Source: Caenorhabditis remanei (lineage: Eukaryota > Nematoda > Chromadorea > Rhabditida > Rhabditidae). Taken from it: 64,000 bases of DNA. The position numbers and the translations under genes were made by a program. The DNA lies in the NCBI RefSeq assembly GCF_010183535.1, contig NC_071331.1:18972001-19036000 (forward strand). Reading direction: 5' to 3'. This document shows, in pieces, positions 18,241-63,208 of this stretch. The notes under the pieces were generated by a model that was not told where the DNA came from, did not search any database, and saw nothing but the letters and a program-made list of their open reading frames with translations. Positions within the stretch are counted from its first letter, which is position 1. Every line of letters begins with the position of its first letter.

Positions 18241-21207
18241 ATTGGTGGAACTTTTTGTATGTACACTAGTTTAATTGTCTTCTGAAATTTCAATTACCAC
18301 ATCAATGTTGTTTGAAACAGTAACCAAAAAAATTGTTGAATGTTGAAATTACATCGCTGACTATTATGAATTCTTTTTTTTTCTGTGCATGAGAAGTCCG
18401 CGCCGCACTCACGAGACGGCAAGGTCCATTTCTTGCAGCAAAAATCATGCGGCGCGAACTTCTCATGCACAGAAAAAAAATTCATAATAGTTGGTATAAC
18501 GGTTAAACTAAAAATTATTTTAAAGCAATAGTTCTTGAAACAGAAATACACTTTTAAATTTTTTGAAAATTTTCCGTTTCAAGATTTTTAGTTATGGAAG
18601 CGTGGTCTTTGATTATTCAATGCGCATGTAACTCCATTTCGTAGAATGTTGAACTTGTTTTCAGGGGTTAGATTAGATAAAAAAAAAGGGTTACTATAAC
18701 GAAATGAAGTATTCAAAACGTGATTCTTCAAAGTTTCTTTTTAGGCTGAATTTTTATGAATTAGCATTTAAAAAAGTAATCATAAAAAAACATACAGTTT
18801 AGTTCTCACAAGTTTTCACAAATCAGATTACCGTAAAAACTGTATTAAAACGGCACCAGTATTATAATAACCCATCTGTACTCAGAATTCATGAATATGA
18901 TAATCAAAAAAATTAAAAGTGTAATGTTTTTTCTTGGTTTTGATTAGAAGCAGCGTGATTAGTAACTTTTTAACCAACAAACAGCCCGTCCAAAAATGTT
19001 TTTCCGTTTAACATAAATGAGTTTCTGAATCCACAAACTTTCTCTGAGAGGCAATTGAAAAAGATAACGGCCTGCCGTTATAATACACTTTTTACGGTAA
19101 ATGGGAAAAAAACTGTTTTTTTTTCAATTAACACATCAACATTGAAACAGTAACAAAAAGGATTTCCTGTTGAGAATATATCCATGATCAGTTGGTTTAA
19201 CGCTTCAACTAAAAAGTGGTGAATTTTGTTTTAGAACATAATTTCATGAAACAGAAACACACTTTAAATTTTTTGAAAATTTTCTGTTTCAAGATTTTCA
19301 GGTATGGAAACGTAGTAATTGATTATTCAGTGCATTTGTAACTGGCACTTCGTATAATGTTGAAGTTGTTTTCAGGAGTAAGATTAGATAAAAAAAAGGG
19401 TTACTATAACGAAATGAAGTATTCAAAACGTGATACTTCAAAGTTTATTTTTTATGTAAGATTAGATAGGGATTACAATGAATGAAATATTTGAAACATC
19501 TAATTCTTTAAAGTTTCATTTTTAGGCTGAGTTTTTATGAAATATCATACAAAAGTAACCAAGACACTTCTTGGAACAAAAAACAAAAAGCAAATGTGTG
19601 AACGAATTGATGAAAATCGATGTACATACGTGTTATGTGTTATGAGTGTTATGGATGTGAACATTACTGTTGTCTGAAATTTGAATTACCCGATCAATGT
19701 TATTTGAAAAAGTAACAAAAACGAGTCGGTTTAGTGCAGCAATTAAAAAGTGGTTGAATTCGTTCTAGAACAGTAATTCTTGAAACAGTAATATATTTTT
19801 AAATTCTTTGAAAATTTTCCGTTTCAAGGTGTTTAAGTATGGAAACGTAGTCAGTTGATTATTCAGTTCTTTTACAATTGACGTTTCAAATACTTTGTAG
19901 AATGTTGAAGTTGTTCTCAGGGGTTAGATTCGATTAAAAATGGATTACAATAACGAAAAGAAGCATTTAAAACGTGATTCTTCAAAGTTTCTTTTTTAGG
20001 CTGAGTTTTTATGAAATAGCATTAAAAGTAATCATAAAGAAACAGAAAAGCATTCAGTTTAGTTCTCACAAGTTTTCACAAATCAGATTACCGTAAAAAC
20101 TGTATTAAAACGGCACAGGTATTATAATAACCCATCTATACTCAGGATTCATGAATATGATTATCCCGATGTTTTTTCTTGGTTTAGATCAGAAGATTAG
20201 TAACTTTTAATCAACAAACAGCCCGTCCAAAAATGTTTTCCGTTTAACATAAAGGAGTTTCTAAATCGACAAACTTTCTCTGAGAGGCAATTGAAAAAGA
20301 TAACGGCTTGCCGTTATAATACAGTTTTTAAGGCAATTGGTGCGACTCGATATACACTTGTTTTTATAAATGTCTCAATTTGAAGATAACTGTTTTCTTT
20401 TTCTTTAAATTACCACATCAATGTTGTTTGAAACAGTAACAAAGAGGAATTCCTGTTGAGAATATATCCATGACCAATTGGTTTAACGCCTCAACTAAAA
20501 AGTGGTTGAATTTGTTCTAGAACAATATTTCTTGAAACAGAAATACGTTTTGAATTTTTTTGAAAATTTTCCGTTTCAAGATTTTTAGGTATGAAAACGT
20601 AGTAATTGATTATTCAGTGCATTTGTAACTGGCACTTCGTATAATGTTGAAGTTGTTTTCAGGAGTAAGATTAGATAAATAGGGATTACAATGAATGAAA
20701 TATTTGAAACATCTAATTCTTTAAAGTATCATTTTTTAGGCTGAGTTTTTATGAAATAGCATAAAAAGTAATCAACAAGGAACAGAAAAGCATATAGTCT
20801 AGATCTCGCATGTTTTCAGAAATCAGTTTAAAAACTTTATTAAAACGGGACCTGTAATAGAACAACACGATTATTATAATATTATAAGGTCCCATCTATA
20901 CTCAGAATTCATGAATATGATTATCCCGGTGTTCCTTTACTTGTTCTGATTGCGTGATAAGTAACTTTTTGAGCAACAAATAGACCATCCAAAAAAGTTT
21001 TTCCGTTTAATTTTAATGAGTTTCTGGAACAAAATTTCTCTGGGAGGCAGTAAAAAAAATAACTGCAATACAGCTTTTACGGTAATTGTTGAGACTTGAT
21101 GTGCATACACTAGTTTTCATAAATCCCTTTATGGGAAGATTACTGTTGAGAATACATCCCTGACAAATTGATATAACTCTTAGATTAGAAAACAGTAGAA
21201 TCCGTTC
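18241..21207. repeat. Tandem array of about 0.7-kb degenerate units, left part
   Basis: Homologous blocks recur at about 18290, 19125, 19680 and 20405. Each has a TTACC-CATCAATGTT start, GTTTGAAACAGTAAC, an ACTAAAAAGTGGTTGAATTYGTTCTAGAAC block, TTCTTGAAACAG, TTTTCCGTTTCAAGATTTT and a GAAGTTGTTTTCAGG block. Several also share AAACAGCCCGTCCAAAAA and CTGAGAGGCAATTGAAAAAG. A fifth unit starts near 21110 and continues at 42671 after the giant insert. No coding potential is visible. Confidence 0.8.
18364..18487. mobile_element. Palindromic TA-flanked hairpin MITE
   Basis: Near-perfect inverted arms (TTATGAATTC, CTGTGCATGAGAAG, CGCGCCGCA and their complements) surround a short centre. TA lies on each side (18362-18363 and 18488-18489). 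The neighbouring repeat units lack this segment, so they show the empty site. Confidence 0.78.
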
Positions 21208-21725
21208 CAGGGATGAGCGGCAATGCCGTTGCCGCGTTGCCGAATTGCCGAAATTGTCGCTTTTTTAAATGGATTGCCGTTGCCGGGTTGCCGACTTTTT
21301 ATTCGGCAATTTTTTTCTAAATCTGCTCAATTTTCAAGCTGAATTCGACAAACTTTTGTTAGAAAATGAGAACTAGATGGTGGTTGAAGGAGTACGAGCG
21401 GAACGTTCATATAAAGTAATACTCGGTGTTTTCGACTTCGAAATTTTGAATTTTAAGCGCCGCCTCCAAATATAGAAATAGTTAGAGTCTATTCTTGAAG
21501 TAGCACGTCATCTACCAACTTGAAATCGCTTTAGAAATGTCAAAACAACTTCAAAACCTCTCCAAAAAGAATCCCATTTCACAGATAGTTTGCTAGCGCG
21601 CGCTCATTTCTCTCGATTGAATGAAAATATAGGTTAATGAGTGAAATAACTGCTCTGTACACCCCTAGATGACATTTCGAACCCCCACCACTGCGTGGAC
21701 ACCTTTCTCTTTTCTTTCTTCACAG

Positions 21726-21803
21726 ATATTTGGTCATATCGAGTTTGGGGAAGATGGAATAGGTCACATATATGTCAGTGTTTTGATTCGAATAAAGGGA
21801 AAA
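21726..21803 (+). other. Possible exon in the left arm of the giant element
   Basis: A good acceptor (TTTCTTTCTTCACAG) and donor (AAA|GTAAGAAG) bracket 26 open codons (IFGHIEFGEDGIGHIYVSVL, then IRIKGK). No partner exon or family is recognised. It may be a captured gene fragment or chance. Confidence 0.25.
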
Positions 21804-22470
21804 GTAAGAAGTTGTTGTTTTAGAAAGTTGTTGAGGAAGGGAGATTGGATCTTTAGGCTACAGTAATCAGTTCGGTAGAGCGCACGCTGAGCTGAAATTG
21901 ATGATCATCGATACCTAGCTCTATACATCTAGTAACAGCCCACACCTATCTTCTAGCTAGGATCGTTAGCGGTTTAGTCAGTCTGAGCGTAGTTTGTACT
22001 TCCCTTTCTCAAAACGGCCCAAAACAATATTAGTATGATTCGAAACCTATTAGTTGAAAATATTTGTTCAATATGGCTCTTCCTTTTAGAGAAATGGAAT
22101 CTTATCACTTATCCATTTCTCAGGTGCCACTTCCAAGTTCCATTCATCACACCATTCGGTTATTATATAACGCGTTCTCAGTAAGACTCGATCAACGTGT
22201 GCCCTAGGGCAAGATTTTTATAAAAACAGATACTATTGGTCATTAGTAACCCATACAAAAATTTTTGAGCTTGGGCTCCGGGTTACGGTAGTACTGTAGG
22301 TGCTCAAAGAGCAAAAAATTTGTTTTGTTTTTGAACGTAGAACGCTCTAATTTTTGGCTTGAAATGAATAAGGTAAGTGTATTTTTTTTGCAAAATTTTA
22401 AAACATGAGAATGATTTTTGACCAATAACAAAATCAGTCCGTTTTTTCGGAAATTTTGAAAAAAAAACTT

Positions 22471-25400
22471 CCAACCCGCGTCTACTGAAGAGAACTTCAG
22501 CCCGGATATTATAGACTACTACATCCTCTGATCGACGAGTCTATCCGGTACCGACACAGATAAGAATGGTGGGGGAAGTTAACTTCATAAAAAGTACCCT
22601 GTTTTTAGGAACTTCAATCGTAATTTTATTGATTTCTAGTTTAAAAAAGTCCTGTTTTTAGGAATTTTAATCGTAATTTTATTGATTTCTAGTTTAAAAA
22701 AAAGTCCTGTTTTTAAGAATTTCAAACCGGTTCCGACACAGGAAAGAATGGTGGGGGAAGTTATTTCATAAAAAGTACCCTGTTTTTAATAATTTCAATC
22801 ATAATTTTATTGATTTCTAGGTTTAAAAAAGTCCTGTTTTTAGGAATTTCAATCATAATATTATTGATTTCTGACCCGGGAGGATTCAAACCCGCGTCTA
22901 CTGAAGAAAACCTCAGCCCGTTTATTATAGACTCCTTCACCCTCTGGTCGAAGTGTGTCTAACCGGTTCCGACACAGATAAGAATGGTGGGGGAAGTTAA
23001 TTTCATAAAAAGTACCCTGTTTTTAGAAATTTCAATCATAATTTTATTGATTTCTAGGTTTAAAAAAGTCCTGTTTTTAGGAATTTCGATTATAATTTAA
23101 TTGATTTCTAGGTTTAAAAAAGTCCTGTTTTTAGGAATTTCGATTATAATTTTATTGATTTCTAGATTTAAAAAAGTCCTGTTTTTAGGAATTTCGATTA
23201 TAATTTCGTTGATTTCTAACCCGGGAGGATTCAAACCCGCGTCTACTGAAGAAAACCTCAGCCCGTTTATTATAGACTCCTTCACCCTCTGGTCGAAGTG
23301 TGTCTAACCGGTTCCGACACAGATAAGAATGGTGGGGGAAGTTAACTTCATAAAAAGTACCCTGTTTTTAGGAACTTCAATCGTAATTTTATTGATTTCT
23401 AGTTTAAAAAAGTCCTGTTTTTAGGAATTTTAATCGTAATTTTATTGATTTCTGACCCGGGAGGATTCAAACCCGCGTCTACTGAAGAAAACCTCAGCCC
23501 GTTTATTATAGACTCCTTCACCCTCTGGTCGAAGTGTGTCTAACCGGTTCCGACACAGATAAGAATGGTGGGGGAAGTTAATTTCATAAAAAGTACCCTG
23601 TTTTTAGAAATTTCAATCATAATTTTATTGATTTCTAGGTTTAAAAAAGTCCTGTTTTTAGGAATTTCGATTATAATTTAATTGATTTCTAGGTTTAAAA
23701 AAGTCCTGTTTTTAGGAATTTCGATTATAATTTTATTGATTTCTAGATTTAAAAAAGTCCTGTTTTTAGGAATTTCGATTATAATTTCGTTGATTTCTAA
23801 CCCGGGAGGATTCAAACCCGCGTCTACTGAAGAAAACCTCAGCCCGTTTATTATAGACTCCTTCACCCTCTGGTCGAAGTGTGTCTAACCGGTTCCGACA
23901 CAGATAAGAATGGTGGGGTAAGTTAATTTCATAAAAAGTACCCTGTTTTTAGAAATTTCAATCATAATTTTATTGATTTCTAGGTTTAAAAAAGTCCTGT
24001 TTTTAGGAATTTCAGTCATAATTTAATTGATTTCTAGGTTTAAAAAAGTCCTGTTTTTAGGAATTTCGATTATAATTTTATTGATTTCTAGATTTAAAAA
24101 AGTCCTGTTTTTAGGAATTTCGATTATAATTTCGTTGATTTCTAACCCGGGAGGATTCAAACCCGCGTCTACTGAAGAAAACCTCAGCCCGTTTATTATA
24201 GACTCCTTCACCCTCTGGTCGAAGTGTGTCTAACCGGTTCCGACACAGATAAGAATGGTGGGGGAAGTTAATTTCATAAAAAGTACCCTGTTTTTAGAAA
24301 TTTCAATCATAATTTTATTGATTTCTAGGTTTAAAAAAGTCCTGTTTTTAGGAATTTCGATTATAATTTAATTGATTTCTAGGTTTAAAAAGTCCTGTTT
24401 TTAGGAATTTCGATTATAATTTTATTGATTTCTAGATTTAAAAAAGTCCTGTTTTTAGGAATTTCGATTATAATTTCGTTGATTTCTAGGTTTAAAAAAG
24501 TCCTGTTTTTAGGAATTTCAATTATAATTTCGTTGATTTCTAACCCGGGAGGATTCAAACCCGCGTCTACTGAAGAAAACCTCAGCCCGTTTATTATAGA
24601 CTCCTTCACCCTCTGGTCGAAGTGTGTCTAACCGGTTCCGACACAGATAAGAATGGTGGGGGAAGTTAATTTCATAAAAAGTACCCTGTTTTTAGAAATT
24701 TCAATCATAATTTTATTGATTTCTAGGTTTAAAAAAGTCCTGTTTTTAGGAATTTCGATTATAATTTAATTGATTTCTAGGTTTAAAAAAGTCCTGTTTT
24801 TAGGAATTTCGATTATAATTTTATTGATTTCTAGGTTTAAAAAAGTCCTGTTTTTAGGAATTTCGATTATAATTTAATTGATTTCTAGGTTTAAAAAAGT
24901 CCTGTTTTTAGGAATTTCAATTATAATTTCGTTGATTTCTAACCCGGGAGGATTCAAACCCGCGTCTACTGAAGAAAACCTCAGCCCGTTTATTATAGAC
25001 TCCTTCACCCTCTGGTCGAAGTGTGTCTAACCGGTTCCGACACAGATAAGAATGGTGGGGGAAGTTAATTTCATAAAAAGTACCCTGTTTTTAGAAATTT
25101 CAATCATAATTTTATTGATTTCTAGGTTTAAAAAAGTCCTGTTTTTAGGAATTTCAGTCATAATTTAATTGATTTCTAGGTTTAAAAAAGTCCTGTTTTT
25201 AGGAATTTCGATTATAATTTTATTGATTTCTAGATTTAAAAAAGTCCTGTTTTTAGGAATTTCGATTATAATTTCGTTGATTTCTAACCCGGGAGGATTC
25301 AAACCCGCGTCTACTGAAGAAAACCTCAGCCCGTTTATTATAGACTCCTTCACCCTCTGGTCGAAGTGTGTCTAACCGGTTCCGACACAGATAAGAATGG

Positions 25401-28400
25401 TGGGGGAAGTTAATTTCATAAAAAGTACCCTGTTTTTAGAAATTTCAATCATAATTTTATTGATTTCTAGGTTTAAAAAAGTCCTGTTTTTAGGAATTTC
25501 GATTATAATTTAATTGATTTCTAGGTTTAAAAAAGTCCTGTTTTTAGGAATTTCGATTATAATTTTATTGATTCTAGATTTAAAAAAGTCCTGTTTTTAG
25601 GAATTTCGATTATAATTTCGTTGATTTCTAGGTTTAAAAAAGTCCTGTTTTTAGGAATTTCAATTATAATTTCGTTGATTTCTAACCCGGGAGGATTCAA
25701 ACCCGCGTCTACTGAAGAAAACCTCAGCCCGTTTATTATAGACTCCTTCACCCTCTGGTCGAAGTGTGTCTAACCGGTTCCGACACAGATAAGAATGGTG
25801 GGGGAAGTTAATTTCATAAAAAGTACCCTGTTTTTAGAAATTTCAATCATAATTTTATTGATTTCTAGGTTTAAAAAAGTCCTGTTTTTAGGAATTTCGA
25901 TTATAATTTAATTGATTTCTAGGTTTAAAAAAGTCCTGTTTTTAGGAATTTCGATTATAATTTTATTGATTTCTAGGTTTAAAAAAGTCCTGTTTTTAGG
26001 AATTTCGATTATAATTTAATTGATTTCTAGGTTTAAAAAAGTCCTGTTTTTAGGAATTTCAATTATAATTTCGTTGATTTCTAACCCGGGAGGATTCAAA
26101 CCCGCGTCTACTGAAGAAAACCTCAGCCCGTTTATTATAGACTCCTTCACCCTCTGGTCGAAGTGTGTCTAACCGGTTCCGACACAGATAAGAATGGTGG
26201 GGGAAGTTAATTTCATAAAAAGTACCCTGTTTTTAGAAATTTCAATCATAATTTTATTGATTTCTAGGTTTAAAAAAGTCCTGTTTTTAGGAATTTCAGT
26301 CATAATTTAATTGATTTCTAGGTTTAAAAAAGTCCTGTTTTTAGGAATTTCGATTATAATTTAATTGATTTCTAGGTTTAAAAAAGTCCTGTTTTTAGGA
26401 ATTTCGATTATAATTTTATTGATTTCTAGGTTTAAAAAAGTCCTGTTTTTAGGAATTTCGATTATAATTTAATTGATTTCTAGGTTTAAAAAAGTCCTGT
26501 TTTTAGGAATTTCAATTATAATTTCGTTGATTTCTAACCCGGGAGGATTCAAACCCGCGTCTACTGAAGAAAACCTCAGCCCGTTTATTATAGACTCCTT
26601 CACCCTCTGGTCGAAGTGTGTCTAACCGGTTCCGACACAGATAAGAATGGTGGGGGAAGTTAATTTCATAAAAAGTACCCTGTTTTTAGAAATTTCAATC
26701 ATAATTTTATTGATTTCTAGGTTTAAAAAAGTCCTGTTTTTAGGAATTTCGATTATAATTTAATTGATTTCTAGGTTTAAAAAAGTCCTGTTTTTAGGAA
26801 TTTCGATTATAATTTTATTGATTTCTAGGTTTAAAAAAGTCCTGTTTTTAGGAATTTCGATTATAATTTAATTGATTTCTAGGTTTAAAAAAGTCCTGTT
26901 TTTAGGAATTTCAATTATAATTTCGTTGATTTCTAACCCGGGAGGATTCAAACCCGCGTCTACTGAAGAAAACCTCAGCCCGTTTATTATAGACTCCTTC
27001 ACCCTCTGGTCGAAGTGTGTCTAACCGGTTCCGACACAGATAAGAATGGTGGGGGAAGTTAATTTCATAAAAAGTACCCTGTTTTTAATAATTTCAATCA
27101 TAATTTTATTGATTTCTAGGTTTAAAAAAGTCCTGTTTTTAGGAATTTCGATTATAATTTAATTGATTTCTAGGTTTAAAAAAGTCCTGTTTTTAGGAAT
27201 TTCGATTATAATTTAATTGATTTCTAGGTTTAAAAAAGTCCTGTTTTTAGGAATTTCAGTCATAATTTAATTGATTTCTAGGTTTAAAAAAGTGCTGTTT
27301 TTAGGAATTTCAATCATAATATTATTGATTTCTAACCCGGGAGGATTCAAACCCGCGTCTACTGAAGAAAACCTCAGCCCGTTTATTATAGACTCCTTCA
27401 CCCTCTGGTCGAAGTGTGTCTAACCGGTTCCGACACAGATAAGAATGGTGGGGGAAGTTAATTTCATAAAAAGTACCCTGTTTTTAATAATTTCAATCAT
27501 AATTTTATTGATTTCTATGTTTAAAAAAGTCCTGTTTTTAGGAATTTCAGTCATAATTTTATTGATTTCTAGGTTTAAAAAAGTCCTGTTTTTAGGAATT
27601 TCGATTATAATTTAATTGATTTCTAGGTTTAAAAAAGTCCTGTTTTTAGGAATTTCGATTATAATTTTATTGATTTCTAGATTTAAAAAAGTCCTGTTTT
27701 TAGGAATTTCGATTATAATTTCGTTGATTTCTAACCCGGGAGGATTCAAACCCGCGTCTACTGAAGAAAACCTCAGCCCGTTTATTATAGACTCCTTCAC
27801 CCTCTGGTCGAAGTGTGTCTAACCGGTTCCGACACAGATAAGAATGGTGGGGGAAGTTAATTTCATAAAAAGTACCCTGTTTTTAGAAATTTCAATCATA
27901 ATTTTATTGATTTCTAGGTTTAAAAAAGTCCTGTTTTTAGGAATTTCAGTCATAATTTAATTGATTTCTAGGTTTAAAAAAGTCCTGTTTTAGGAATTTC
28001 GATTATAATTTTATTGATTTCTAGATTTAAAAAAGTCCTGTTTTTAGGAATTTCGATTATAATTTCGTTGATTTCTAACCCGGGAGGATTCAAACCCGCG
28101 TCTACTGAAGAAAACCTCAGCCCGTTTATTATAGACTCCTTCACCCTCTGGTCGAAGTGTGTCTAACCGGTTCCGACACAGATAAGAATGGTGGGGGAAG
28201 TTAATTTCATAAAAAGTACCCTGTTTTTAGAAATTTCAATCATAATTTTATTGATTTCTAGGTTTAAAAAAGTCCTGTTTTTAGGAATTTCGATTATAAT
28301 TTAATTGATTTCTAGGTTTAAAAAAGTCCTGTTTTTAGGAATTTCGATTATAATTTCGTTGATTTCTAGGTTTAAAAAAGTCCTGTTTTTAGGAATTTCA

Positions 28401-31400: not shown

Positions 31401-34400
31401 TTTCTAGGTTTAAAAAAGTCCTGTTTTTAGGAATATCAATTATAATTTCGTTGATTTCTAACCCGGGAGGATTCAAACCCGCGTCTACTGAAGAAAACCT
31501 CAGCCCGTTTATTATAGACTCCTTCACCCTCTGGTCGAAGTGTGTCTAACCGGTTCCGACACAGATAAGAATGGTGGGGGAAGTTAATTTCATAAAAAGT
31601 ACCCTGTTTTTAATAATTTCAATCATAATTTTATTGATTTCTAGGTTTAAAAAAGTCCTGTTTTTAGAAATTTCAGTCATAATATTATTGATTTCTAGAT
31701 TTAAAAAAGTCCTGTTTTTAGGAATTTCAATCATAATTTCGTTGATTTCTAACCCGGGAGGATTCAAACCCGCGTCTACTAAAGAAAACCTCAGCCCGTT
31801 TATTATAGACTCCTTCACCCTCTGGTCGAAGTGTGTCTAACCGGTTCCGACACAGATAAGAATGGTGGGGGAAGTTAATTTCATAAAAAGTACCCTGTTT
31901 TTAATAATTTCAATCATAATTTTATTGATTTCTAGGTTTAAAAAAGTCCTGTTTTTAGAAATTTCAGTCATAATATTATTGATTTCTAGATTTAAAAAAG
32001 TCCTGTTTTTAGGAATATCAATTATAATTTCGTTGATTTCTAACCCGGGAGGATTCAAACCCGCGTCTACTGAAGAAAACCTCAGCCCGTTTATTATAGA
32101 CTCCTTCACCCTCTGGTCGAAGTGTGTCTAACCGGTTCCGACACAGATAAGAATGGTGGGGGAAGTTAATTTCATAAAAAGTACCCTGTTTTTAATAATT
32201 TCAATCATAATTTTATTGATTTCTAGGTTTAAAAAAGTCCTGTTTTTAGGAATTTCAGTCATAATTTTATTGATTTCTAGGTTTAAAAAAGTCCTGTTTT
32301 TAGGAATTTCGATTATAATTTAATTGATTTCTAGGTTTAAAAAAGTCCTGTTTTTAGGAATTTCGATTATAATTTAATTGATTTCTATGTTTAAAAAAGT
32401 CCTGTTTTTAGGAATTTCAGTCATAATTTTATTGATTTCTAGGTTTAAAAAAGTCCTGTTTTTAGGAATTTCGATTATAATTTAATTGATTTCTAGGTTT
32501 AAAAAAGTCCTGTTTTTAGGAATTTCGATTATAATTTAATTGATTTCTAGGTTTAAAAAAGTCCTGTTTTTAGGAATTTCGATTATAATTTTATTGATTT
32601 CTAGATTTAAAAAAGTCCTGTTTTTAGGAATTTCGATTATAATTTCGTTGATTTCTAACCCGGGAGGATTCAAACCCGCGTCTACTGAAGAAAACCTCAG
32701 CCCGTTTATTATAGACTCCTTCACCCTCTGGTCGAAGTGTGTCTAACCGGTTCCGACACAGATAAGAATGGTGGGGGAAGTTAATTTCATAAAAAGTACC
32801 CTGTTTTTAATAATTTCAATCATAATTTTATTGATTTCTAGGTTTAAAAAAGTCCTGTTTTTAGGAATTTCGATTATAATTTAATTGATTTCTAGGTTTA
32901 AAAAAGTCCTGTTTTTAGGAATTTCAATTATAATTTCGTTGATTTCTAACCCGGGAGGATTCAAACCCGCGTCTACTGAAGAAAACCTCAGCCCGTTTAT
33001 TATAGACTCCTTCACCCTCTGGTCGAAGTGTGTCTAACCGGTTCCGACACAGATAAGAATGGTGGGGGAAGTTAATTTCATAAAAAGTACCCTGTTTTTA
33101 ATAATTTCAATCATAATTTTATTGATTTCTAGGTTTAAAAAAGTCCTGTTTTTAGAAATTTCAGTCATAATATTATTGATTTCTAGATTTAAAAAAGTCC
33201 TGTTTTTAGGAATTTCAATCATAATTTCGTTGATTTCTAACCCGGGAGGATTCAAACCCGCGTCTACTAAAGAAAACCTCAGCCCGTTTATTATAGACTC
33301 CTTCACCCTCTGGTCGAAGTGTGTCTAACCGGTTCCGACACAGATAAGAATGGTGGGGGAAGTTAATTTCATAAAAAGTACCCTGTTTTTAATAATTTCA
33401 ATCATAATTTTATTGATTTCTAGGTTTAAAAAAGTCCTGTTTTTAGGAATTTCGATTATAATTTAATTGATTTCTAGGTTTAAAAAAGTCCTGTTTTTAG
33501 GAATTTCAATCATAATTTCGTTGATTTCTAACCCGGGAGGATTCAAACCCGCGTCTACTGAAGAAAACCTCAGCCCGTTTATTATAGACTCCTTCACCCT
33601 CTGGTCGAAGTGTGTCTAACCGGTTCCGACACAGATAAGAATGGTGGGGGAAGTTAATTTCATAAAAAGTACCCTGTTTTTAATAATTTCAATCATAATT
33701 TTATTGATTTCTAGGTTTAAAAAAGTCCTGTTTTTAGAAATTTCAGTCATAATATTATTGATTTCTAGATTTAAAAAAGTCCTGTTTTTAGGAATTTCAA
33801 TCATAATTTCGTTGATTTCTAACCCGGGAGGATTCAAACCCGCGTCTACTAAAGAAAACCTCAGCCCGTTTATTATAGACTCCTTCACCCTCTGGTCGAA
33901 GTGTGTCTAACCGGTTCCGACACAGATAAGAATGGTGGGGGAAGTTAATTTCATAAAAAGTACCCTGTTTTTAATAATTTCAATCATAATTTTATTGATT
34001 TCTAGGTTTAAAAAAGTCCTGTTTTTAGAAATTTCAGTCATAATATTATTGATTTCTAGATTTAAAAAAGTCCTGTTTTTAGGAATTTCAATCATAATTT
34101 CGTTGATTTCTAACCCGGGAGGATTCAAACCCGCGTCTACTGAAGAAAACCTCAGCCCGTTTATTATAGACTCCTTCACCCTCTGGTCGAAGTGTGTCTA
34201 ACCGGTTCCGACACAGATAAGAATGGTGGGGGAAGTTAATTTCATAAAAAGTACCCTGTTTTTAATAATTTCAATCATAATTTTATTGATTTCTAGGTTT
34301 AAAAAAGTCCTGTTTTTAGGAATTTCAGTCATAATATTATTGATTTCTAGATTTAAAAAAGTCCTGTTTTTAGGAATTTCGATTATAATTTCGTTGATTT

Positions 34401-37400
34401 CTAACCCGGGAGGATTCAAACCCGCGTCTACTAAAGAAAACCTCAGCCCGTTTATTATAGACTCCTTCACCCTCTGGTCGAAGTGTGTCTAACCGGTTCC
34501 GACACAGGAAAGAATGGTGGGGGAAGTTAATTTCATAAAAAGTACCCTGTTTTTAATAATTTCAATCATAATTTTATTGATTTCTAGGTTTAAAAAAGTC
34601 CTGTTTTTAGGAATTTCGATTATAATTTAATTGATTTCTAACCCGGGAGGATTCAAACCCGCGTCTACTGAAGAAAACCTCAGCCCGTTTATTATAGACT
34701 CCTTCACCCTCTGGTCGAAGTGTGTCTAACCGGTTCCGACACAGATAAGAATGGTGGGGGAAGTTAATTTCATAAAAAGTACCCTGTTTTTAATAATTTC
34801 AATCATAATTTTATTGATTTCTAGGTTTAAAAAAGTCCTGTTTTTTTAGGAATTTCGATTATAATTTAATTGATTTCTAGGTTTAAAAAAGTCCTGTTTT
34901 TAGGAATTTCAGTCATAATTTTATTGATTTCTAACCCGGGAGGATTCAAACCCGCGTCTACTGAAGAAAACCTCAGCCCGTTTATTATAGACTCCTTCAC
35001 CCTCTGGTCGAAGTGTGTCTAACCGGTTCCGACACAGATAAGAATGGTGGGGGAAGTTAATTTCATAAAAAGTACCCTGTTTTTAATAATTTCAATCATA
35101 ATTTTATTGATTTCTAGGTTTAAAAAAGTCCTGTTTTTAGGAATTTCGATTATAATTTAATTGATTTCTAACCCGGGAGGATTCAAACCCGCGTCTACTG
35201 AAGAAAACCTCAGCCCGTTTATTATAGACTCCTTCACCCTCTGGTCGAAGTGTGTCTAACCGGTTCCGACACAGATAAGAATGGTGGGGGAAGTTAATTT
35301 CATAAAAAGTACCCTGTTTTTAATAATTTCAATCATAATTTTATTGATTTCTAGGTTTAAAAAAGTCCTGTTTTTAGGAATTTCGATTATAATTTAATTG
35401 ATTTCTAACCCGGGAGGATTCAAACCCGCGTCTACTGAAGAAAACCTCAGCCCGTTTATTATAGACTCCTTCACCCTCTGGTCGAAGTGTGTCTAACCGG
35501 TTCCGACACAGATAAGAATGGTGGGGGAAGTTAATTTCATAAAAAGTACCCTGTTTTTAATAATTTCAATCATAATTTTATTGATTTCTAGGTTTAAAAA
35601 AGTCCTGTTTTTAGGAATTTCGATTATAATTTAATTGATTTCTAACCCGGGAGGATTCAAACCCGCGTCTACTGAAGAAAACCTCAGCCCGTTTATTATA
35701 GACTCCTTCACCCTCTGGTCGAAGTGTGTCTAACCGGTTCCGACACAGATAAGAATGGTGGGGGAAGTTAATTTCATAAAAAGTACCCTGTTTTTAATAA
35801 TTTCAATCATAATTTTATTGATTTCTAGATTTAAAAAAGTCCTGTTTTTAGGAATTTCGATTATAATTTAATTGATTTCTAACCCGGGAGGATTCAAACC
35901 CGCGTCTACTGAAGAAAACCTCAGCCCGTTTATTATAGACTCCTTCACCCTCTGGTCGAAGTGTGTCTAACCGGTTCCGACACAGATAAGAATGGTGGGG
36001 GAAGTTATTTCATAAAAAGTACCCTGTTTTTAATAATTTCAATCATAATTTAATTGATTTCTAGGTTTAAAAAAGTCCTGTTTTTAGGAATTTCGATTAT
36101 AATTTCGTTGATTTCTAACCCGGGAGGATTCAAACCCGCGTCTACTGAAGAAAACCTCAGCCCGTTTATTATAGACTCCTTCACCCTCTGGTCGAAGTGT
36201 GTCTAACCGGTTCCGACACAGATAAGAATGGTGGGGGAAGTTAATTTCATAAAAAGTACCCTGTTTTTAATAATTTCAATCATAATTTTAATGATTTCTA
36301 GGTTTAAAAAAGTCCTGTTTTTAGGAATTTCAATCATAATTTTAATGATTTCTAGATTTAAAAAAGTCCTGTTTTTAGGAATTTCGATTATAATTTAATT
36401 GATTTCTAACCCGGGAGGATTCAAACCCGCGTCTACTGAAGAAAACCTCAGCCCGTTTATTATAGACTCCTTCACCCTCTGGTCGAAGTGTGTCTAACCG
36501 GTTCCGACACAGATAAGAATGGTGGGGGAAGTTATTTCATAAAAAGTACCCTGTTTTTAATAATTTCAATCATAATTTTATTGATTTCTAGGTTTAAAAA
36601 AGTCCTGTTTTTAGGAATTTCGATTATAATTTAATTGATTTCTAACCCGGGAGGATTCAAACCCGCGTCTACTGAAGAAAACCTCAGCCCGTTTATTATA
36701 GACTCCTTCACCCTCTGGTCGAAGTGTGTCTAACCGGTTCCGACACAGATAAGAATGGTGGGGGAAGTTATTTCATAAAAAGTACCCTGTTTTTAATAAT
36801 TTCAATCATAATTTAATTGATTTCTAGGTTTAAAAAAGTCCTGTTTTTAGGAATTTCGATTATAATTTAATTGATTTCTAACCCGGGAGGATTCAAACCC
36901 GCGTCTACTGAAGAAAACCTCAGCCCGTTTATTATAGACTCCTTCACCCTCTGGTCGAAGTGTGTCTAACCGGTTCCGACACAGATAAGAATGGTGGGGG
37001 AAGTTATTTCATAAAAAGTACCCTGTTTTTAATAATTTCAATCATAATTTTAATGATTTCTAGGTTTAAAAAAGTCCTGTTTTTAGGAATTTCGATTATA
37101 ATTTCGTTGATTTCTAACCCGGGAGGATTCAAACCCGCGTCTACTGAAGAAAACCTCAGCCCGTTTATTATAGACTCCTTCACCCTCTGGTCGAAGTGTG
37201 TCTAACCGGTTCCGACACAGATAAGAATGGTGGGGGAAGTTAATTTCATAAAAAGTACCCTGTTTTTAATAATTTCAATCATAATTTTAATGATTTCTAG
37301 GTTTAAAAAAGTCCTGTTTTTAGGAATTTCAATCATAATTTCGTTGATTTCTAACCCGGGAGGATTCAAACCCGCGTCTACTGAAGAAAACCTCAGCCCG

Positions 37401-40400
37401 TTTATTATAGACTCCTTCACCCTCTGGTCGAAGTGTGTCTAACCGGTTCCGACACAGATAAGAATGGTGGGGGAAGTTATTTCATAAAAAGTACCCTGTT
37501 TTTAATAATTTCAATCATAATTTTATTGATTTCTAGGTTTAAAAAAGTCCTGTTTTTAGGAATTTCGATTATAATTTAATTGATTTCTAACCCGGGAGGA
37601 TTCAAACCCGCGTCTACTGAAGAAAACCTCAGCCCGTTTATTATAGACTCCTTCACCCTCTGGTCGAAGTGTGTCTAACCGGTTCCGACACAGATAAGAA
37701 TGGTGGGGGAAGTTAATTTCATAAAAAGTACCCTGTTTTTAATAATTTCAATCATAATTTTAATGATTTCTAGGTTTAAAAAAGTCCTGTTTTTAATAAT
37801 TTCAATCATAATTTTAATGATTTCTAGATTTAAAAAAGTCCTGTTTTTAGGAATTTCGATTATAATTTAATTGATTTCTAACCCGGGAGGATTCAAACCC
37901 GCGTCTACTGAAGAAAACCTCAGCCCGTTTATTATAGACTCCTTCACCCTCTGGTCGAAGTGTGTCTAACCGGTTCCGACACAGATAAGAATGGTGGGGG
38001 AAGTTATTTCATAAAAAGTACCCTGTTTTTAATAATTTCAATCATAATTTTATTGATTTCTAGGTTTAAAAAAGTCCTGTTTTTAGGAATTTCGATTATA
38101 ATTTAATTGATTTCTAACCCGGGAGGATTCAAACCCGCGTCTACTGAAGAAAACCTCAGCCCGTTTATTATAGACTCCTTCACCCTCTGGTCGAAGTGTG
38201 TCTAACCGGTTCCGACACAGATAAGAATGGTGGGGGAAGTTATTTCATAAAAAGTACCCTGTTTTTAATAATTTCAATCATAATTTAATTGATTTCTAGG
38301 TTTAAAAAAGTCCTGTTTTTAGGAATTTCGATTATAATTTAATTGATTTCTAACCCGGGAGGATTCAAACCCGCGTCTACTGAAGAAAACCTCAGCCCGT
38401 TTATTATAGACTCCTTCACCCTCTGGTCGAAGTGTGTCTAACCGGTTCCGACACAGATAAGAATGGTGGGGGAAGTTATTTCATAAAAAGTACCCTGTTT
38501 TTAATAATTTCAATCATAATTTTAATGATTTCTAGGTTTAAAAAAGTCCTGTTTTTAGGAATTTCGATTATAATTTCGTTGATTTCTAACCCGGGAGGAT
38601 TCAAACCCGCGTCTACTGAAGAAAACCTCAGCCCGTTTATTATAGACTCCTTCACCCTCTGGTCGAAGTGTGTCTAACCGGTTCCGACACAGATAAGAAT
38701 GGTGGGGGAAGTTAATTTCATAAAAAGTACCCTGTTTTTAATAATTTCAATCATAATTTTAATGATTTCTAGGTTTAAAAAAGTCCTGTTTTTAGGAATT
38801 TCAATCATAATTTCGTTGATTTCTAACCCGGGAGGATTCAAACCCGCGTCTACTGAAGAAAACCTCAGCCCGTTTATTATAGACTCCTTCACCCTCTGGT
38901 CGAAGTGTGTCTAACCGGTTCCGACACAGATAAGAATGGTGGGGGAAGTTATTTCATAAAAAGTACCCTGTTTTTAATAATTTCAATCATAATTTAATTG
39001 ATTTCTAGGTTTAAAAAAGTCCTGTTTTTAGGAATTTCAATCATAATTTCGTTGATTTCTAACCCGGGAGGATTCAAACCCGCGTCTACTGAAGAAAACC
39101 TCAGCCCGTTTATTATAGACTCCTTCACCCTCTGGTCGAAGTGTGTCTAACCGGTTCCGACACAGATAAGAATGGTGGGGGAAGTTATTTCATAAAAAGT
39201 ACCCTGTTTTTAATAATTTCAATCATAATTTAATTGATTTCTAGGTTTAAAAAAGTCCTGTTTTTAGGAATTTCGATTATAATTTCGTTGATTTCTAACC
39301 CGGGAGGATTCAAACCCGCGTCTACTGAAGAAAACCTCAGCCCGTTTATTATAGACTCCTTCACCCTCTGGTCGAAGTGTGTCTAACCGGTTCCGACACA
39401 GATAAGAATGGTGGGGGAAGTTAATTTCATAAAAAGTACCCTGTTTTTAATAATTTCAATCATAATTTTAATGATTTCTAGGTTTAAAAAAGTCCTGTTT
39501 TTAGGAATTTCGATTATAATTTAATTGATTTCTAACCCGGGAGGATTCAAACCCGCGTCTACTGAAGAAAACCTCAGCCCGTTTATTATAGACTCCTTCA
39601 CCCTCTGGTCGAAGTGTGTCTAACCGGTTCCGACACAGATAAGAATGGTGGGGGAAGTTAATTTCATAAAAAGTACCCTGTTTTTAATAATTTCAATCAT
39701 AATTTTAATGATTTCTAGGTTTAAAAAAGTCCTGTTTTTAGGAATTTCAATCATAATTTCGTTGATTTCTAACCCGGGAGGATTCAAACCCGCGTCTACT
39801 GAAGAAAACCTCAGCCCGTTTATTATAGACTCCTTCACCCTCTGGTCGAAGTGTGTCTAACCGGTTCCGACACAGATAAGAATGGTGGGGGAAGTTAATT
39901 TCATAAAAAGTACCCTGTTTTTAATAATTTCAATCATAATTTAATTGATTTCTAGGTTTAAAAAAGTCCTGTTTTTAGGAATTTCGATTATAATTTAATT
40001 GATTTCTAACCCGGGAGGATTCAAACCCGCGTCTACTGAAGAAAACCTCAGCCCGTTTATTATAGACTCCTTCACCCTCTGGTCGAAGTGTGTCTAACCG
40101 GTTCCGACACAGGAAAGAATGGTGGGGGAAGTTAATTTCATAAAAAGTACCCTGTTTTTAATAATTTCAATCATAATTTTAATGATTTCTAGGTTTAAAA
40201 AAGTCCTGTTTTTAGGAATTTCGATTATAATTTAATTGATTTCTAGGTTTAAAAAAGTCCTGTTTTTAGGAATTTCAGTCATAATTTTATTGATTTCTAA
40301 CCCGGGAGGATTCAAACCCGCGTCTACTGAAGAAAACCTCAGCCCGTTTATTATAGACTCCTTCACCCTCTGGTCGAAGTGTGTCTAACCGGTTCCGACA

Positions 40401-41727
40401 CAGATAAGAATGGTGGGGGAAGTTAATTTCATAAAAAGTACCCTGTTTTTAATAATTTCAATCATAATTTTAATGATTTCTAGGTTTAAAAAAGTCCTGT
40501 TTTTAGGAATTTCGATTATAATTTTATTGATTTCTAGGTTTAAAAAAGTCCTGTTTTTAGGAATTTCGATTATAATTTCGTTGATTTCTAACCCGGGAGG
40601 ATTCAAACCCGCGTCTACTGAAGAAAACCTCAGCCCGTTTATTATAGACTCCTTCACCCTCTGGTCGAAGTGTGTCTAACCGGTTCCGACACAGGAAAGA
40701 ATGGTGGGGGAAGTTAATTTCATAAAAAGTACCCTGTTTTTAATAATTTCAATCATAATTTTAATGATTTCTAGGTTTAAAAAAGTCCTGTTTTTAGGAA
40801 TTTCAGTCATAATTTTAATGATTTCTAGGTTTAAAAAAGTCCTGTTTTTAGGAATTTCAGTCATAATTTTATTGATTTTTAGGTTTAAAAAAGTCCTGTT
40901 TTTAGGAATTTCAGTCATAATTTTAATGATTTCTAGGTTTAAAAAAGTCCTGTTTTTAGGAATTTCAGTCATAATTTTATTGATTTCTAGGTTTAAATAA
41001 GTCCTGTTTTTAGGAATTTCAGTCATAATTTTATTGATTTCTAGGTTTAAAAAAGTCCTGTTTTTAGGAATTTCAATCATAATTTTAATGATTTCTAGGT
41101 TTAAAAAAGTCCTGTTTTTAGGAATTTCAATCATAATTTTATTGATTTCTAGGTTTAAAAAAGTCCTGTTTTTAGGAATTTCAGTCATAATTTTATTGAT
41201 TTCTAGGTTTAAAAAAGTCCTGTTTTTAGGAATTTCAGTCATAATTTTATTGATTTCTAGGTTTAAAAAAGTCCTGTTTTTAGGAATTTCGATTATAATT
41301 TCGTTGATTTCTAACCCGGGAGGATTCAAACCCGCGTCTACTGAAGAAAACCTCAGCCCGTTTATTATAGACTCCTTCACCCTCTGGTCGAAGTGTGTCT
41401 AACCGGTTCCGACACAGGAAAGAATGGTGGGGGAAGTTAATTTCATAAAAAGTACCCTGTTTTTAATAATTTCAATCATAATTTTAATGATTTCTAGGTT
41501 TAAAAAGTCCTGTTTTTAGGAATTTCAGTCATAATTTTATTGATTTCTAGGTTTAAAAAAGTCTTGTTTTTAGGAATTTCGATTATAATTTCGTTGATTT
41601 CTAACCCGGGAGGATTCAAACCCGCGTCTACTGAAGAAAACCTCAGCCCGGGTATTATAAACTACTACATCCTCTGATCGACGAGTCTATCCGGTTCCGA
41701 CACAGATAGGAATGGTGGGGGAAGTTA
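22471..41727. repeat. Two-level nested satellite (54-bp monomers within 237-bp-plus units)
   Basis: About 60 major units by my count. Each has an anchor part (ACCGGTTCCGACACAG, AAGAATGGTGGGGGAAGTTA, AAAAAGTACCCTG and, later, AACCCGGGAGGATTCAAACC and CTCCTTCACCCTCTGGTCGA) plus a variable number of 54-bp monomers (GGTTTAAAAAAGTCCTG, TTTTTAGGAATTTC, ATTGATTTCTA). Unit length is therefore 237 bp plus multiples of 54: 237, 291, 345, 399, up to about 993 bp at 29754-30747. Internal copies are nearly identical and differ by single-base variants (GATTATAATTTAATTG, AGTCATAATTTTATTG and so on), so amplification is recent. The 54-bp period is a multiple of three and keeps short frames open on both strands; these are not genes. 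Confidence 0.95.
36206..39149. repeat. Six-unit higher-order repeat, two 1,472-bp copies
   Basis: The block from 36206 to 37677 is repeated from 37678 to about 39149. The same succession of unit lengths and variants (TTAATTTC versus TTATTTC anchors, ATTTTAATG versus ATTTAATTG) recurs at a constant offset of 1,472 bp. Confidence 0.8.
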
Positions 41728-41773
41728 AAATTAAGAGCGATAAAGTATCTCGATTCTAGGCTTTTTAACTTAC

Positions 41774-41884
41774 GTCTATCAAATTGATCGTCATTTGATT
41801 CGTCTCGATCCATTACTTTCTTGTCCACCGTTTCTTGCACTCGAGCGTTGTTTATCTCAGTTTGGTCGGTTTGCTTTTTATGCA
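41774..41884 (-). other. Possible exon in the right arm of the giant element
   Basis: On the minus strand an acceptor (AGCACAG at 41887-41885, or the better TTTTTTTTCAG ending at 41898) and a strong donor (GAC|GTAAGTT at 41774/41773) bracket an open, hydrophilic reading frame containing QETVDKKVMDRDESNDDQFD. With the longer 5' boundary a stop codon precedes it in frame. No family recognised. It is on the opposite strand to the candidate exon at 21726-21803. Confidence 0.25.
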
Positions 41885-42578
41885 CTGTGCTTTAGCACTG
41901 AAAAAAAAAACATTGGTTTATAAACGAACTGAGAAAATAGGGAATATATGTACGAGATAAATCATGGTTATGTGGATATCTCAAAGATGTCCAAAAAAGA
42001 GAAGATAGAAGAGTCAGCATCCAGTACGGAAAGATGGTGGACGACTGAGCCAAGAAGATGATGATGAGGAGACTGGGGGCCAGTGGGCGGAGACTAGCAG
42101 CCATCTGGTGGCCTAATAGGATCAGTGATTTCCCAAGGAGATAAGTGAGCCTCTATCTATTATATGTTCTCTTGGGAAAGGGCACGGAAACAGGAGGAAA
42201 GAGGTTGATGAGGTCAAACAAAAACAAAAAATGCAGTCATCTGACAAAGGACAGGTGGGCCCTCTTATCCTACCATTCAAGGTTCCAAGTTTCCCTTAAA
42301 TTCATCCGTTCGGACCGATTTCCCAAAGAGATAAGGAGACAGATGGTAAGACGTAAAAATCAATGTCCCTGACAGTATATCGGGAGACACAATGTGTAAA
42401 TTAGTTGACATGTCTACGTTGAAAAATGGATATTTCAAACATGGATATTTTTCGATTTTCTAAAAGAATTTTTTGAATTTTATCCGAAAAAAACGGAAAA
42501 TACTTTCATTTATTCAAAGCAACTGTCACTGGCGATATACAGTGTACTGTGCTCGCTTTTGTTTTTCTCCCGACTTAG

Positions 42579-42582
<4 letters not shown>

Positions 42583-42615
<33 letters not shown>
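42583..42615. repeat. Poly-A run of about 33
   Basis: A homopolymer A tract directly inside the TTGCCG-rich right terminus of the giant element. Confidence 0.85.
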
Positions 42616-42617
<2 letters not shown>

Positions 42618-42670
42618 GGCAATTGCCGGATTGCCGGATTGCCGAAATTTTCCGTTGCCGCTCATTCCTG

Positions 42671-43300
42671 ATCCGTTCTAGAAGATTATTTCTTGAAACA
42701 GTAACACATTTTTAACTTTGTTTAAGTGTTTCTGTTTCAAAAGTTTTAGGTATGGAAACGTTGACTTTGATTATTCAGTGCATAACTAACTGAGCGATAG
42801 AATAATTTGTAGAATTTTGAAATTGTTATCAAGCATACTTGCAACGGGCCGGGCCGGGCCGGGCCGATTTGAGAATTTTCACTGGCCCGGCCCGGCCCGG
42901 TCGGCCCGGGTCACAGTACAAAAATTTGAAAATTTGAATTTTTTAAAAATTTTTTTGATTTTTTCGCAAAAAAGTCGAATTTTCGACTATGTTTTTACAT
43001 GTCGATAAAACTCAAGTTTACATAGGATTTTTGTCTATTTTTGACGAAAATTTCAAAAAATTTCGAAAAATTTTGTGAAAAAATCATTTTTTGACTCCGG
43101 GCCGACCGGGCCGGGCCGGGCCGGGTCGATATTTTGCAAGTATGCTATCAAGGGTTGTATTAGATCAGAAATAAATTACAATGACGAAATGAAAAATTTG
43201 AATCACTTGGTTTTTCAAAGTTTCTTTGTTTGACTGAGTTTTTTTTCTGAAATAGCCTAAAAAGTAATCAACATACTTCTAGGATCCAAAAAAGCAAATA
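42671..43300. repeat. Remainder of the interrupted 0.7-kb unit
   Basis: TTCTTGAAACAGTAACAC, TTTCTGTTTCAAAAGTTTT, GGTATGGAAACG and TGATTATTCAGTGCAT continue the order found in the 18.2-21.2 kb array. The hAT-type MITE at 42834-43144 interrupts it within the GAAGTTGTTTTCAGG-type block. Confidence 0.75.
42834..43144. mobile_element. hAT-type MITE with (GGGCC)n termini, copy 2
   Basis: Ends CATACTTGCA and TGCAAGTATG with an 8-bp duplication matching at 7 of 8 (TTATCAAG and CTATCAAG). GGGCCGGGCC runs lie inside both ends. It is 311 bp with no coding sequence. Confidence 0.83.
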
Positions 43301-48789: not shown

Positions 48790-48861
48790 TTCCCATGCCG
48801 GGAATCGAACCCGGGCCGCGTGGGTGAAAACCACGAATCCTAACCACTAGACCACATGGGA
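48790..48861 (-). tRNA. tRNA-Glu (anticodon TTC)
   Basis: A 72-base cloverleaf on the minus strand. The 5' acceptor strand TCCCATG pairs with CATGGGA, followed by the discriminator A at 48790. The A box is TGGTCTAGTGG and the B box GGTTCGATTCC. The anticodon loop TTTTCAC contains TTC, which reads GAA codons for glutamate. CCA is not encoded, as in eukaryotes. All stems are intact, so it is probably functional. It is an independent pol III gene, transcribed in the opposite direction to the protein gene on its left. Confidence 0.97.
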
Positions 48862-50477: not shown

Positions 50478-50485
50478 GTACAAAA

Positions 50486-50900
50486 CAGAGTTGTCCGGAT
50501 TCCGAAATTCCGGGTTTTTTGACATTCCGATTCCGGTTCCGGATTCCGGAAAATTAAAATTTTCATTCCGGTTCCGGATTCCGGATTCCGGTTTTCCGAG
50601 TTTCCTTTTTCCGGAATCCAGAAGTTGAAATTTTAAAAATTGTTTGAGTTTAAAAGACAACTAAAGTACTTCTTTTTCGGTTTTGATCCTCGAAAGTAGT
50701 TTTAAACTTTATTTTATCATTAAAAACACTCGAAAAAATGACTTACATTTAGCCTTGAAAATTTATCGAATCATTCCGAATTCCGAAATTCCGGATATCC
50801 GGGTTTTTTCGTCATTCCGGTTCCGGATTCCATATTCCGGAAAATGTAAAACCTCATTCCGGATCCCGGAAATCGAAAAATGTCATTCCGTACAACTCTG
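50486..50900. mobile_element. hAT-type MITE with (TTCCGGA) termini
   Basis: Inverted ends CAGAGTTGT (50486) and ACAACTCTG (50900) with a perfect 8-bp duplication GTACAAAA (50478-50485 and 50901-50908). Each arm is made of TTCCGGATTCCGG-type words. It is 415 bp with no transposase. Confidence 0.88.
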
Positions 50901-51139
50901 GTACAAAACATCTCTGACCTTCTTACTGTAGATATTCTTGATCGCGGTTCTTCCACAAAAATTTTTTACTCACTGTCAAGCCGGTGTCGCACCCTCAGTT
51001 CAAGAATAAATCTTTGAATGTTTTGAAAGTTTTAACTCAAAAACGTTTTTGGACTAAGACTGAATTATTTTCGAAAAAAAAGTTAAGGCGGGAAAACATT
51101 AATTCTGACAAAATTTGCTTCAATTCCTTGCAAAATGAA

Positions 51140-62575: not shown

Positions 62576-62684
62576 ATTTTTGCAAAAATTTGACGGATTG
62601 AACGTGAAAACAGAAAATATTTTTTGCGTGGTCAGGAAAACGAAAGAATTCCCTAAGAGAATTCAGTAGAAACCATGGCTGACT

Positions 62685-63112
62685 TAGGCTTTCCATCCGG
62701 ACGGGCGTTTCTGCGGGCGGCCCTCGCCCGCCCGGGCGGCGACCCGCCCGTGCCCGCCCTAGCCCGCCCTAGGGTAGACTGGCATAATAAAACTTGTCTC
62801 TTTAATTTATTTTTTGCACAGTTTCAATCGTAGTTTGTCAAAAAAAAACCTATAGCACTGTCTTCCTAATTAAAAAAAATGAAAACAAAAAAGTTTGCAG
62901 CAAAAAAGTTAGAACTCGGGAGGAGCAGATTCAAAAACAAGGTTGTTAACCACTAGGCCAAGCCTTCGCTTGAAGAGAGAGAGGGGAAAGGGGGGTGAAG
63001 AAAGGAGGCTGTCACGCAAAGAAAAGAGAGGCGGTAGGGCCGCCTTAGGGCGGGTCGCCGCCCGCCCTAGGGCGGGTCGGGCGGGCATTTCGACGCCCGG
63101 ATGGAAAGCCTA
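62685..63112. mobile_element. hAT-type MITE with (GGGCGG) termini, nested
   Basis: Inverted ends TAGGCTTTCCATCCGG and CCGGATGGAAAGCCTA with a perfect 8-bp duplication GGCTGACT (62677-62684 and 63113-63120). Subterminal CGCCCG, GGGCGG and CCCTAGGGC words; an AT-rich centre with a G/A-rich stretch. It is 428 bp with no transposase, inserted into the element at 61741-63200. Confidence 0.9.
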
Positions 63113-63208
63113 GGCTGACTATAAGGTCCTGTAACTTTGGAGAGTGTGAATATTTTCAAAAAAAGAAAAAATGAGTTTGAAAAAAATGTTGCGGTCTCTA
63201 GCTATGAT

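What the first reader, a model, noticed from the sequence alone, without database searches (positions are those of the whole stretch)
21200..42678. A 21.5-kb insertion with MITE-like termini and a perfect 8-bp target duplication
The two ends are inverted copies (CAGGGATGAGCGGCAA with one mismatch) with matching TTGCCG-rich subterminal DNA, and ATCCGTTC flanks both. Elements of this look in the same window are 0.3-1.5 kb. Either a very large non-autonomous hAT-type element moved as a unit, or a short one landed and then grew about 19 kb of satellite inside itself. The second would be a direct example of satellite birth within a transposon.
Basis: partly seen in the sequence, partly recalled or inferred. 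Interest (0 to 1): 0.9.

Follow-up and report, generated by a model that had tools for sequence, protein, structure and literature searches.

The report
Jumping gene carrying a satellite array
This 21.5-kb stretch is one member of a scattered family of hAT-type jumping genes that carry a long tandem-repeat array as cargo, so the repeat was not born at this spot; its arrays differ from copy to copy in length and sequence type.

Summary
Inverted 16-bp ends (15 of 16 matching) lie at 21208 and 42670, beside a perfect 8-bp duplication ATCCGTTC. A scan for such structures gave 3 hits in the window and none in 10 randomised windows.

Nine further loci carry the same arm sequence joined to the same satellite, in the same orientation. 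Four of them have both ends and an 8-bp duplication (three perfect, one 7 of 8), at 6.8, 7.3, 7.3 and 28.7 kb. A 2.4-kb copy with the same ends encodes a hAT dimerisation domain; 20 short end-pairs (0.34-0.58 kb) exist. So this is a large non-autonomous hAT family with a satellite as cargo. Birth at this locus is refuted.

Growth or replacement did happen. Array spans run from about 2.8 to 25 kb. The 128-bp unit has three types that ignore the flank phylogeny. In this copy, type B units at both edges enclose 57 type A units.

Closest known: transposons with internal tandem repeats (Tetris) and 'transposable satellites' of C. nigoni. New variant of a known kind.

The parts
21200..21207 (+). left copy of the 8-bp target duplication ATCCGTTC
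21208..21223 (+). left terminal inverted repeat CAGGGATGAGCGGCAA
21208..21352 (+). hAT/MITE-derived left end, TTGCCG-rich, shared with the short MITEs and with L049 (inner limit approximate)
21353..22470 (+). inner left arm; its last ~300 bp (22161-22465) is also a dispersed repeat elsewhere without the satellite (L022-L028)
22471..41727 (+). satellite array: 54-56-bp monomers and a 128-bp unit in periods of 236-453 bp
22471..22588 (+). left-edge partial 128-bp unit, type B (read by eye)
22874..41446 (+). 57 full-length interior 128-bp units, type A, mean pairwise identity 99.4%
41604..41733 (+). right-edge 128-bp unit, type B (87.7% to the interior consensus)
41728..42421 (+). right module shared with class X arrays that lack the hAT arms
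42423..42670 (+). hAT/MITE-derived right end (inner limit approximate); 42493-42533 resembles the 5' coding region of the L049 hAT
42655..42670 (-). right terminal inverted repeat CAGGAATGAGCGGCAA
42671..42678 (+). right copy of the 8-bp target duplication ATCCGTTC

Best explanation
The 21.46-kb segment is a non-autonomous hAT transposon that carries a satellite array as cargo. Shown: hAT ends (about 145 bp left, about 250 bp right) enclose an inner left arm, the array and a 0.69-kb right module; nine other loci carry arm sequence joined to the same array, four of them with both ends and an 8-bp target duplication. Inferred: the composite arose once, when an internally deleted hAT element acquired a piece of an older satellite-bearing sequence (class X), and was then mobilised by transposase of relatives such as L049. 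Inferred from the arrays: after the copies diverged, arrays changed length by unequal exchange of blocks, and interiors were replaced by another array type, probably by recombination or repair from another locus. This copy looks like a type B array whose interior was taken over by type A and amplified to 57 units.
For: Ends, duplication and control. Nine other loci with arm, array and same right junction; four with duplications E3 CCCCATTG, E5 ATTCGAAC, E6 ATCTATAC, E4 7 of 8. E3 lies in a dispersed repeat whose uninterrupted form has 119 matches at up to 3 mismatches. L049: same ends, ATCATCAT on both sides, PF05699 at 1.2e-10. E5 holds 83 listed exact type C cores over 25 kb inside one target-duplicated unit. 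Block duplication and neighbour similarity in this array. Type A inside, B at both edges; closest right-module match E1 is B in the part held, while E8 shares the interior consensus and 71% of spacer 25-mers. Types do not follow the right-module tree.
Against: E1, E2, E7, E8 and E9 have no testable pair of ends. For E2, E5, E7, E8 and E9 much of the array was not read; E7 has a 7.2-kb stretch without listed exact hits, E2 has non-satellite stretches and E4 a break of about 575 bp. Spacer monomers do not follow unit type overall (408 of 5000 shuffles as high), and E0 shares 48% of spacer 25-mers with X42, a type B array. No clean insertion junction of the cargo into the hAT was found. No reads, no empty allele of this site, and no test that L049 is active. 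The 379-aa frame of L049 has no Pfam match at 0.01.
Confidence: 0.87

Rival explanations
1. Satellite birth in place: a short hAT MITE landed here and a satellite arose and grew inside this copy.
For: Short copies of the ends exist (20 pairs); block duplication inside the array.
Against: The same array at the same right junction in 9 of 9 other hAT-ended loci E1-E9 and in class X loci; 2,117 genomic 25-mer matches. The 4 short copies aligned lack the inner arms.
Confidence: 0.02
2. The array moved at essentially its present size, with no growth at this site: the source copy was already about 21 kb with type A inside and type B edges.
For: A 28.7-kb copy with perfect duplication exists, so long units may well transpose.
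Against: No other copy among the 20 loci compared has B edges round an A interior like this one; X40 has a B right edge and A interior but lacks the hAT arms. Not excluded.
Confidence: 0.3
3. Library model: ancestral arrays held types A, B and C together, and different types were amplified in different copies without exchange between loci.
For: Four of 17 assigned right-edge units are of another type than their interior; spacers do not follow type overall.
Against: Same-type 128-bp consensus is 92-100% identical between hAT-ended and class X loci while right modules are 85-91% identical; E3 and X42 are 100% against 87%, E0 and E8 100% against 91%. Constraint on the unit could also explain this.
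Confidence: 0.35
4. Two separate hAT insertions, chance, or a misassembly bracket a pre-existing satellite.
For: No reads could be inspected; the array is the kind of sequence that assemblers get wrong in length.
Against: Perfect duplication here and in three other long copies, 7 of 8 in a fourth; 0 hits in 10 controls; same arm-array order at nine other loci.
Confidence: 0.03

Closest known systems
Tetris / TIR-220 of Drosophila virilis (PMC4079207; abstract and sections 10 and 20 read)
   Same: Non-autonomous DNA transposon with internal tandem repeats, 8-9-bp target duplications in its three complete copies, a related short element (DAIBAM), and repeats that also form long arrays (up to 66 copies).
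   Different: Foldback element with ~220-bp repeats inside long TIRs; the authors suggest that amplification disrupted the element. Here a single array lies between hAT arms, and the longest arrays stay inside intact, target-duplicated units.
Caenorhabditis nigoni satellite families with conserved flanks (PMC5748669; passages and section 3.5 read)
   Same: Dispersed Caenorhabditis satellites with conserved flanks of about 500 bases and inferred transposition.
   Different: The family described in detail has 3-16 repeats of 137 bp in most members; the parts I read name no transposon ends, target duplications or transposase.
Helitron-associated satellites of C. elegans (PMC4595182; passages read) and MITE- or Helitron-borne tandem repeats listed in PMC9659126 (passages read)
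   Same: DNA transposons that carry and spread satellite repeats.
   Different: Other superfamilies as listed there (Helitron, Tc1-mariner, Pearl and others); array sizes in those cases were not checked.
hAT MITE family of this genome and its transposase-domain copy L049
   Same: Same ends, subterminal DNA and 8-bp duplications.
   Different: MITEs are 0.34-0.58 kb and L049 2.4 kb; the 4 MITEs and L049 that I held lack the inner arms and the satellite.

Membership tests
hAT superfamily, non-autonomous (defining features recalled) | 8-bp target site duplication | tested here: met
   E0, E3, E5, E6 perfect, E4 7 of 8; MITEs L003, L008 and L049 perfect
hAT superfamily, non-autonomous (defining features recalled) | short terminal inverted repeats beginning CAG | tested here: met
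hAT superfamily, non-autonomous (defining features recalled) | a relative with the same ends encodes a hAT transposase | tested here: met
   L049: PF05699 1.2e-10 in a 173-aa frame; its 379-aa frame has no Pfam match at 0.01
hAT superfamily, non-autonomous (defining features recalled) | actual mobilisation by that transposase | not testable with these tools
   no assay, no population data
MITE | short element of a few hundred bp | tested here: not met
   21.46 kb; the ends alone belong to a MITE family
Satellite-bearing transposon (Tetris-like kind) | tandem array lies inside the transposable unit in several independent insertions | tested here: met
   five target-duplicated units counting this one
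Foldback element such as Tetris | tandem repeats inside long terminal inverted repeats | tested here: not met
   one array in one orientation between non-repeated arms
tRNA-derived repeat (considered for the 128-bp unit) | match to a tRNA model | tested here: not met
   no ARAGORN or Rfam tRNA match in the array or in a type C sample

The most novel reading that the evidence does not exclude
Dispersed hAT elements form an exchanging pool of satellite arrays: array interiors are swapped between loci on different chromosomes (for instance by gap repair after excision), so a satellite evolves in concert across the genome while its transposon carriers diverge, and arrays of up to 25 kb travel as cargo.
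Probability: 0.3. Interest if true: 0.8.

Novelty: new variant of a known kind. Interest (0 to 1): 0.62.

Why it matters
How satellites become scattered over a genome, and how distant arrays stay alike, are old questions. Here one family offers several insertions with intact ends and target duplications, arrays of different size, and flanks whose history can be read apart from the arrays, so transposition, growth and replacement can be told apart copy by copy. It also gives a concrete carrier for the kind of moving satellite that was reported in Caenorhabditis without a named transposon in the parts I read (PMC5748669).

Tried and rejected
tRNA origin of the 128-bp unit: suggested by a B-box-like stretch seen by eye (motif recalled); not borne out. 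RNA structure: the unit folds no better than shuffles (z -1.08, -0.11, 0.46). Unit type following the flanks: not so. Spacer monomers following unit type: not significant (408 of 5000), told as evidence against my reading. A first monomer extraction by pattern failed and was replaced by shared 25-mers. An exon-and-splice-donor reading of the right module's minus strand was noticed and not tested. Ends of class X: not determined; three class X arrays have no homology to this left arm on their left side and differ from one another.

Rows dropped and limits: before the consensus I set apart the units touching the right arm (17 of 20 loci assigned; none for X42, X45, X47) and dropped the minus-strand unit of L046, units under 125 nt, a unit starting before its locus, and locus L020; the left side of E5 (L014) was not in that set. 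In one search only bases 27-690 of the right module were used. Most arrays were held only in part (mostly 1.5 kb or more beside each hit); E0 and E1 were held whole, and closed the gaps of E3, E4 and E6. The DNA searches scored 40 candidates each of 213 and 177, so copy numbers are lower bounds; pattern searches list at most 100 places. Two right-arm loci (C6:2955048-2955995, C6:20076620-20077411) were not examined.

In print: nine library searches showed me no description of this family; supplements were not read. PMC8447722 (abstract only) and PMC12132450 (passages) were looked at and not used.

Full report
OBSERVATION. The ends and the duplication are real. CAGGGATGAGCGGCAA lies at 21208-21223 and its inverted copy, with one mismatch, at 42655-42670; these are the only two matches at up to three mismatches in the window. 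ATCCGTTC abuts both. The octamer alone is not rare (4 in the window, 1.77 expected), but an exact 8-bp repeat abutting inverted ends that match at 14 or more of 16 bases occurs 3 times in the window and in none of 10 Markov controls. The other two hits, about 0.4 kb each, have other ends.

GENOME. The window is part of a 130.47-Mb assembly of 186 contigs. Size and six large contigs fit Caenorhabditis remanei; that is recalled, not tested. The 16-bp end, at up to one mismatch, has 68 genomic matches against 0 for the reversed control. Paired by eye they give 20 facing pairs of 337-579 bp (MITEs) and five longer ones of 2.4, 6.8, 7.3, 21.5 and 28.7 kb.

FAMILY. The left arm (21208-22470) and right arm (41728-42670) were searched in the genome. 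Besides this copy (E0), nine loci carry arm sequence joined to the same satellite in the same orientation, with the array against base 1 of the right arm in 9 of 9: E1 C6:15631256-15636203, E2 C6:16601511-16612514, E3 C6:5586275-5593053, E4 C2:17938186-17945493, E5 C1:4748624-4777283, E6 C3:13288557-13295871, E7 C1 about 2250841-2267135, E8 C5 about 13418557-13428234, and E9 C6 ending 13749194, whose left side was not held. With this copy on C4 they lie on all six large contigs. A tenth locus, X35 (C5:15796540), has the array and much of the right arm but no recognised end. The left arms of E1-E8 are followed by the satellite within 450 bp in 8 of 8. Target duplications: E3 CCCCATTG, E5 ATTCGAAC and E6 ATCTATAC perfect, E4 CTTCCAAC against CTTCCGAC; two MITEs are perfect. 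E1, E2, E7, E8 and E9 have no testable pair of ends. E3 lies in a dispersed repeat whose uninterrupted form has 119 matches at up to three mismatches.

TRANSPOSASE. L049 (C4:7004191-7006636) has the same ends and ATCATCAT on both sides. A 173-aa frame matches the hAT dimerisation domain PF05699 at 1.2e-10; a 379-aa frame has no Pfam match at 0.01. About 145 bp of the left and 250 bp of the right end of the long copies belong to this hAT/MITE family. No clean junction of the cargo was found.

SATELLITE. The array has 54-56-bp monomers and a 128-bp unit in periods of 236 to 453 bp. The genome has 2,117 matches to a 25-mer of the unit at up to three mismatches, reversed control 0. From first satellite match to right arm, E1 spans about 2.8 kb, E6 3.9, E3 4.2, E4 4.6, E0 19.3 and E5 25.1 kb. 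E3 and E6 are satellite throughout the stretches filled in; E4 has a break of about 575 bp. E5 has 83 exact type C cores listed between 4751002 and 4775784 (counted by eye). E2 has non-satellite stretches, and E7 a 7.2-kb stretch without listed exact hits.

CLASS X. A pattern in the right module finds 36 places. In 20 of 20 loci with the module that I held, counting this copy, the satellite lies beside it; nine of them (L040-L048) show no hAT arms. Three such arrays have three different left flanks, without homology to this left arm. That the hAT copies took a piece of this older class is inference.

THREE ARRAY TYPES. The middle of the 128-bp unit has three forms: A (E0, E4, E6, E7, E8, X40, X41, X46), B (E1, E3, E9, X42, X44, X45, X47) and C (E2, E5, X35, X43, X48). 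Genome counts of their cores at up to three mismatches are 522, 514 and 721. Interior units within an array are on average 96-100% alike. Types do not follow the right-module tree: 11 changes, least possible 2, shuffled mean 9.6 (3 of 17 inner branches starred). Of 17 assigned right-edge units, those of E0, E8, X35 and X40 are of another type than their interior. E0 has type B at both edges (left edge read by eye) round 57 type A units. Its best right-module match, E1 (93%, equal with E6), is type B; E8 (91%) shares E0's interior consensus (100%) and 71% of spacer 25-mers, against 10% for E1. I read this as replacement and amplification of E0's interior. Against it: spacers do not follow type overall (408 of 5000 shuffles as high), and E0 shares 48% with X42, a type B array.

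GROWTH. In E0, neighbouring unit blocks differ at 4.0 positions against 5.55 when shuffled (0 of 2000 as low), and the haplotype block 23-24-25-22 occurs twice. This is what unequal exchange would leave.

VERDICT ON THE EITHER/OR. Long units carrying the satellite have inserted repeatedly. Birth at this locus is excluded. Growth or replacement inside copies is well supported but not timed against insertion.

PRIOR WORK. Tetris of D. virilis is the nearest described element (PMC4079207: abstract and two sections). C. nigoni has satellite families with conserved flanks and inferred transposition (PMC5748669: passages and one section). C. remanei was reported to have the most long-repeat satellites of the species studied, 292 with repeats over 150 bases (PMC4595182: passages). 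The review PMC9659126 (passages) lists MITE- and Helitron-borne cases. My nine searches showed no hAT family with switching array types.

Noticed in passing
window 62677-63120: A 0.4-kb element with perfect 16-bp inverted ends (TAGGCTTTCCATCCGG) and 8-bp duplication GGCTGACT; another MITE family.
   Followed up: no
window 50478-50908: A 0.4-kb element with ends CAGAGTTGTCCGGATT (14 of 16) and 8-bp duplication GTACAAAA.
   Followed up: no
window 42581-42615: A pure run of 35 A in the right arm of this copy, where related copies have unique sequence; a recent change or an assembly matter.
   Followed up: no
window 41728-42421, minus strand; L040-L048: The right module could encode a short first exon followed by a splice donor (read by eye), with the satellite in what would be the intron.
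   Followed up: no
L046; C1:365865-370304: Some class X loci are palindromic: array and right module in mirror image round a short centre, arrays outward; at C1:365865-370304 only unit orientation was seen.
   Followed up: partly
L022-L028: The last ~300 bp of the left arm is a dispersed repeat that also occurs, in places as inverted pairs, without the satellite in the loci held.
   Followed up: no
window 40676-41380, minus strand: The 54-bp monomers stay open as an 18-residue repeat over a 234-aa frame; probably a by-product of the monomer length.
   Followed up: no
window 48790-48861: tRNA-Glu gene (TTC), minus strand.
   Followed up: no
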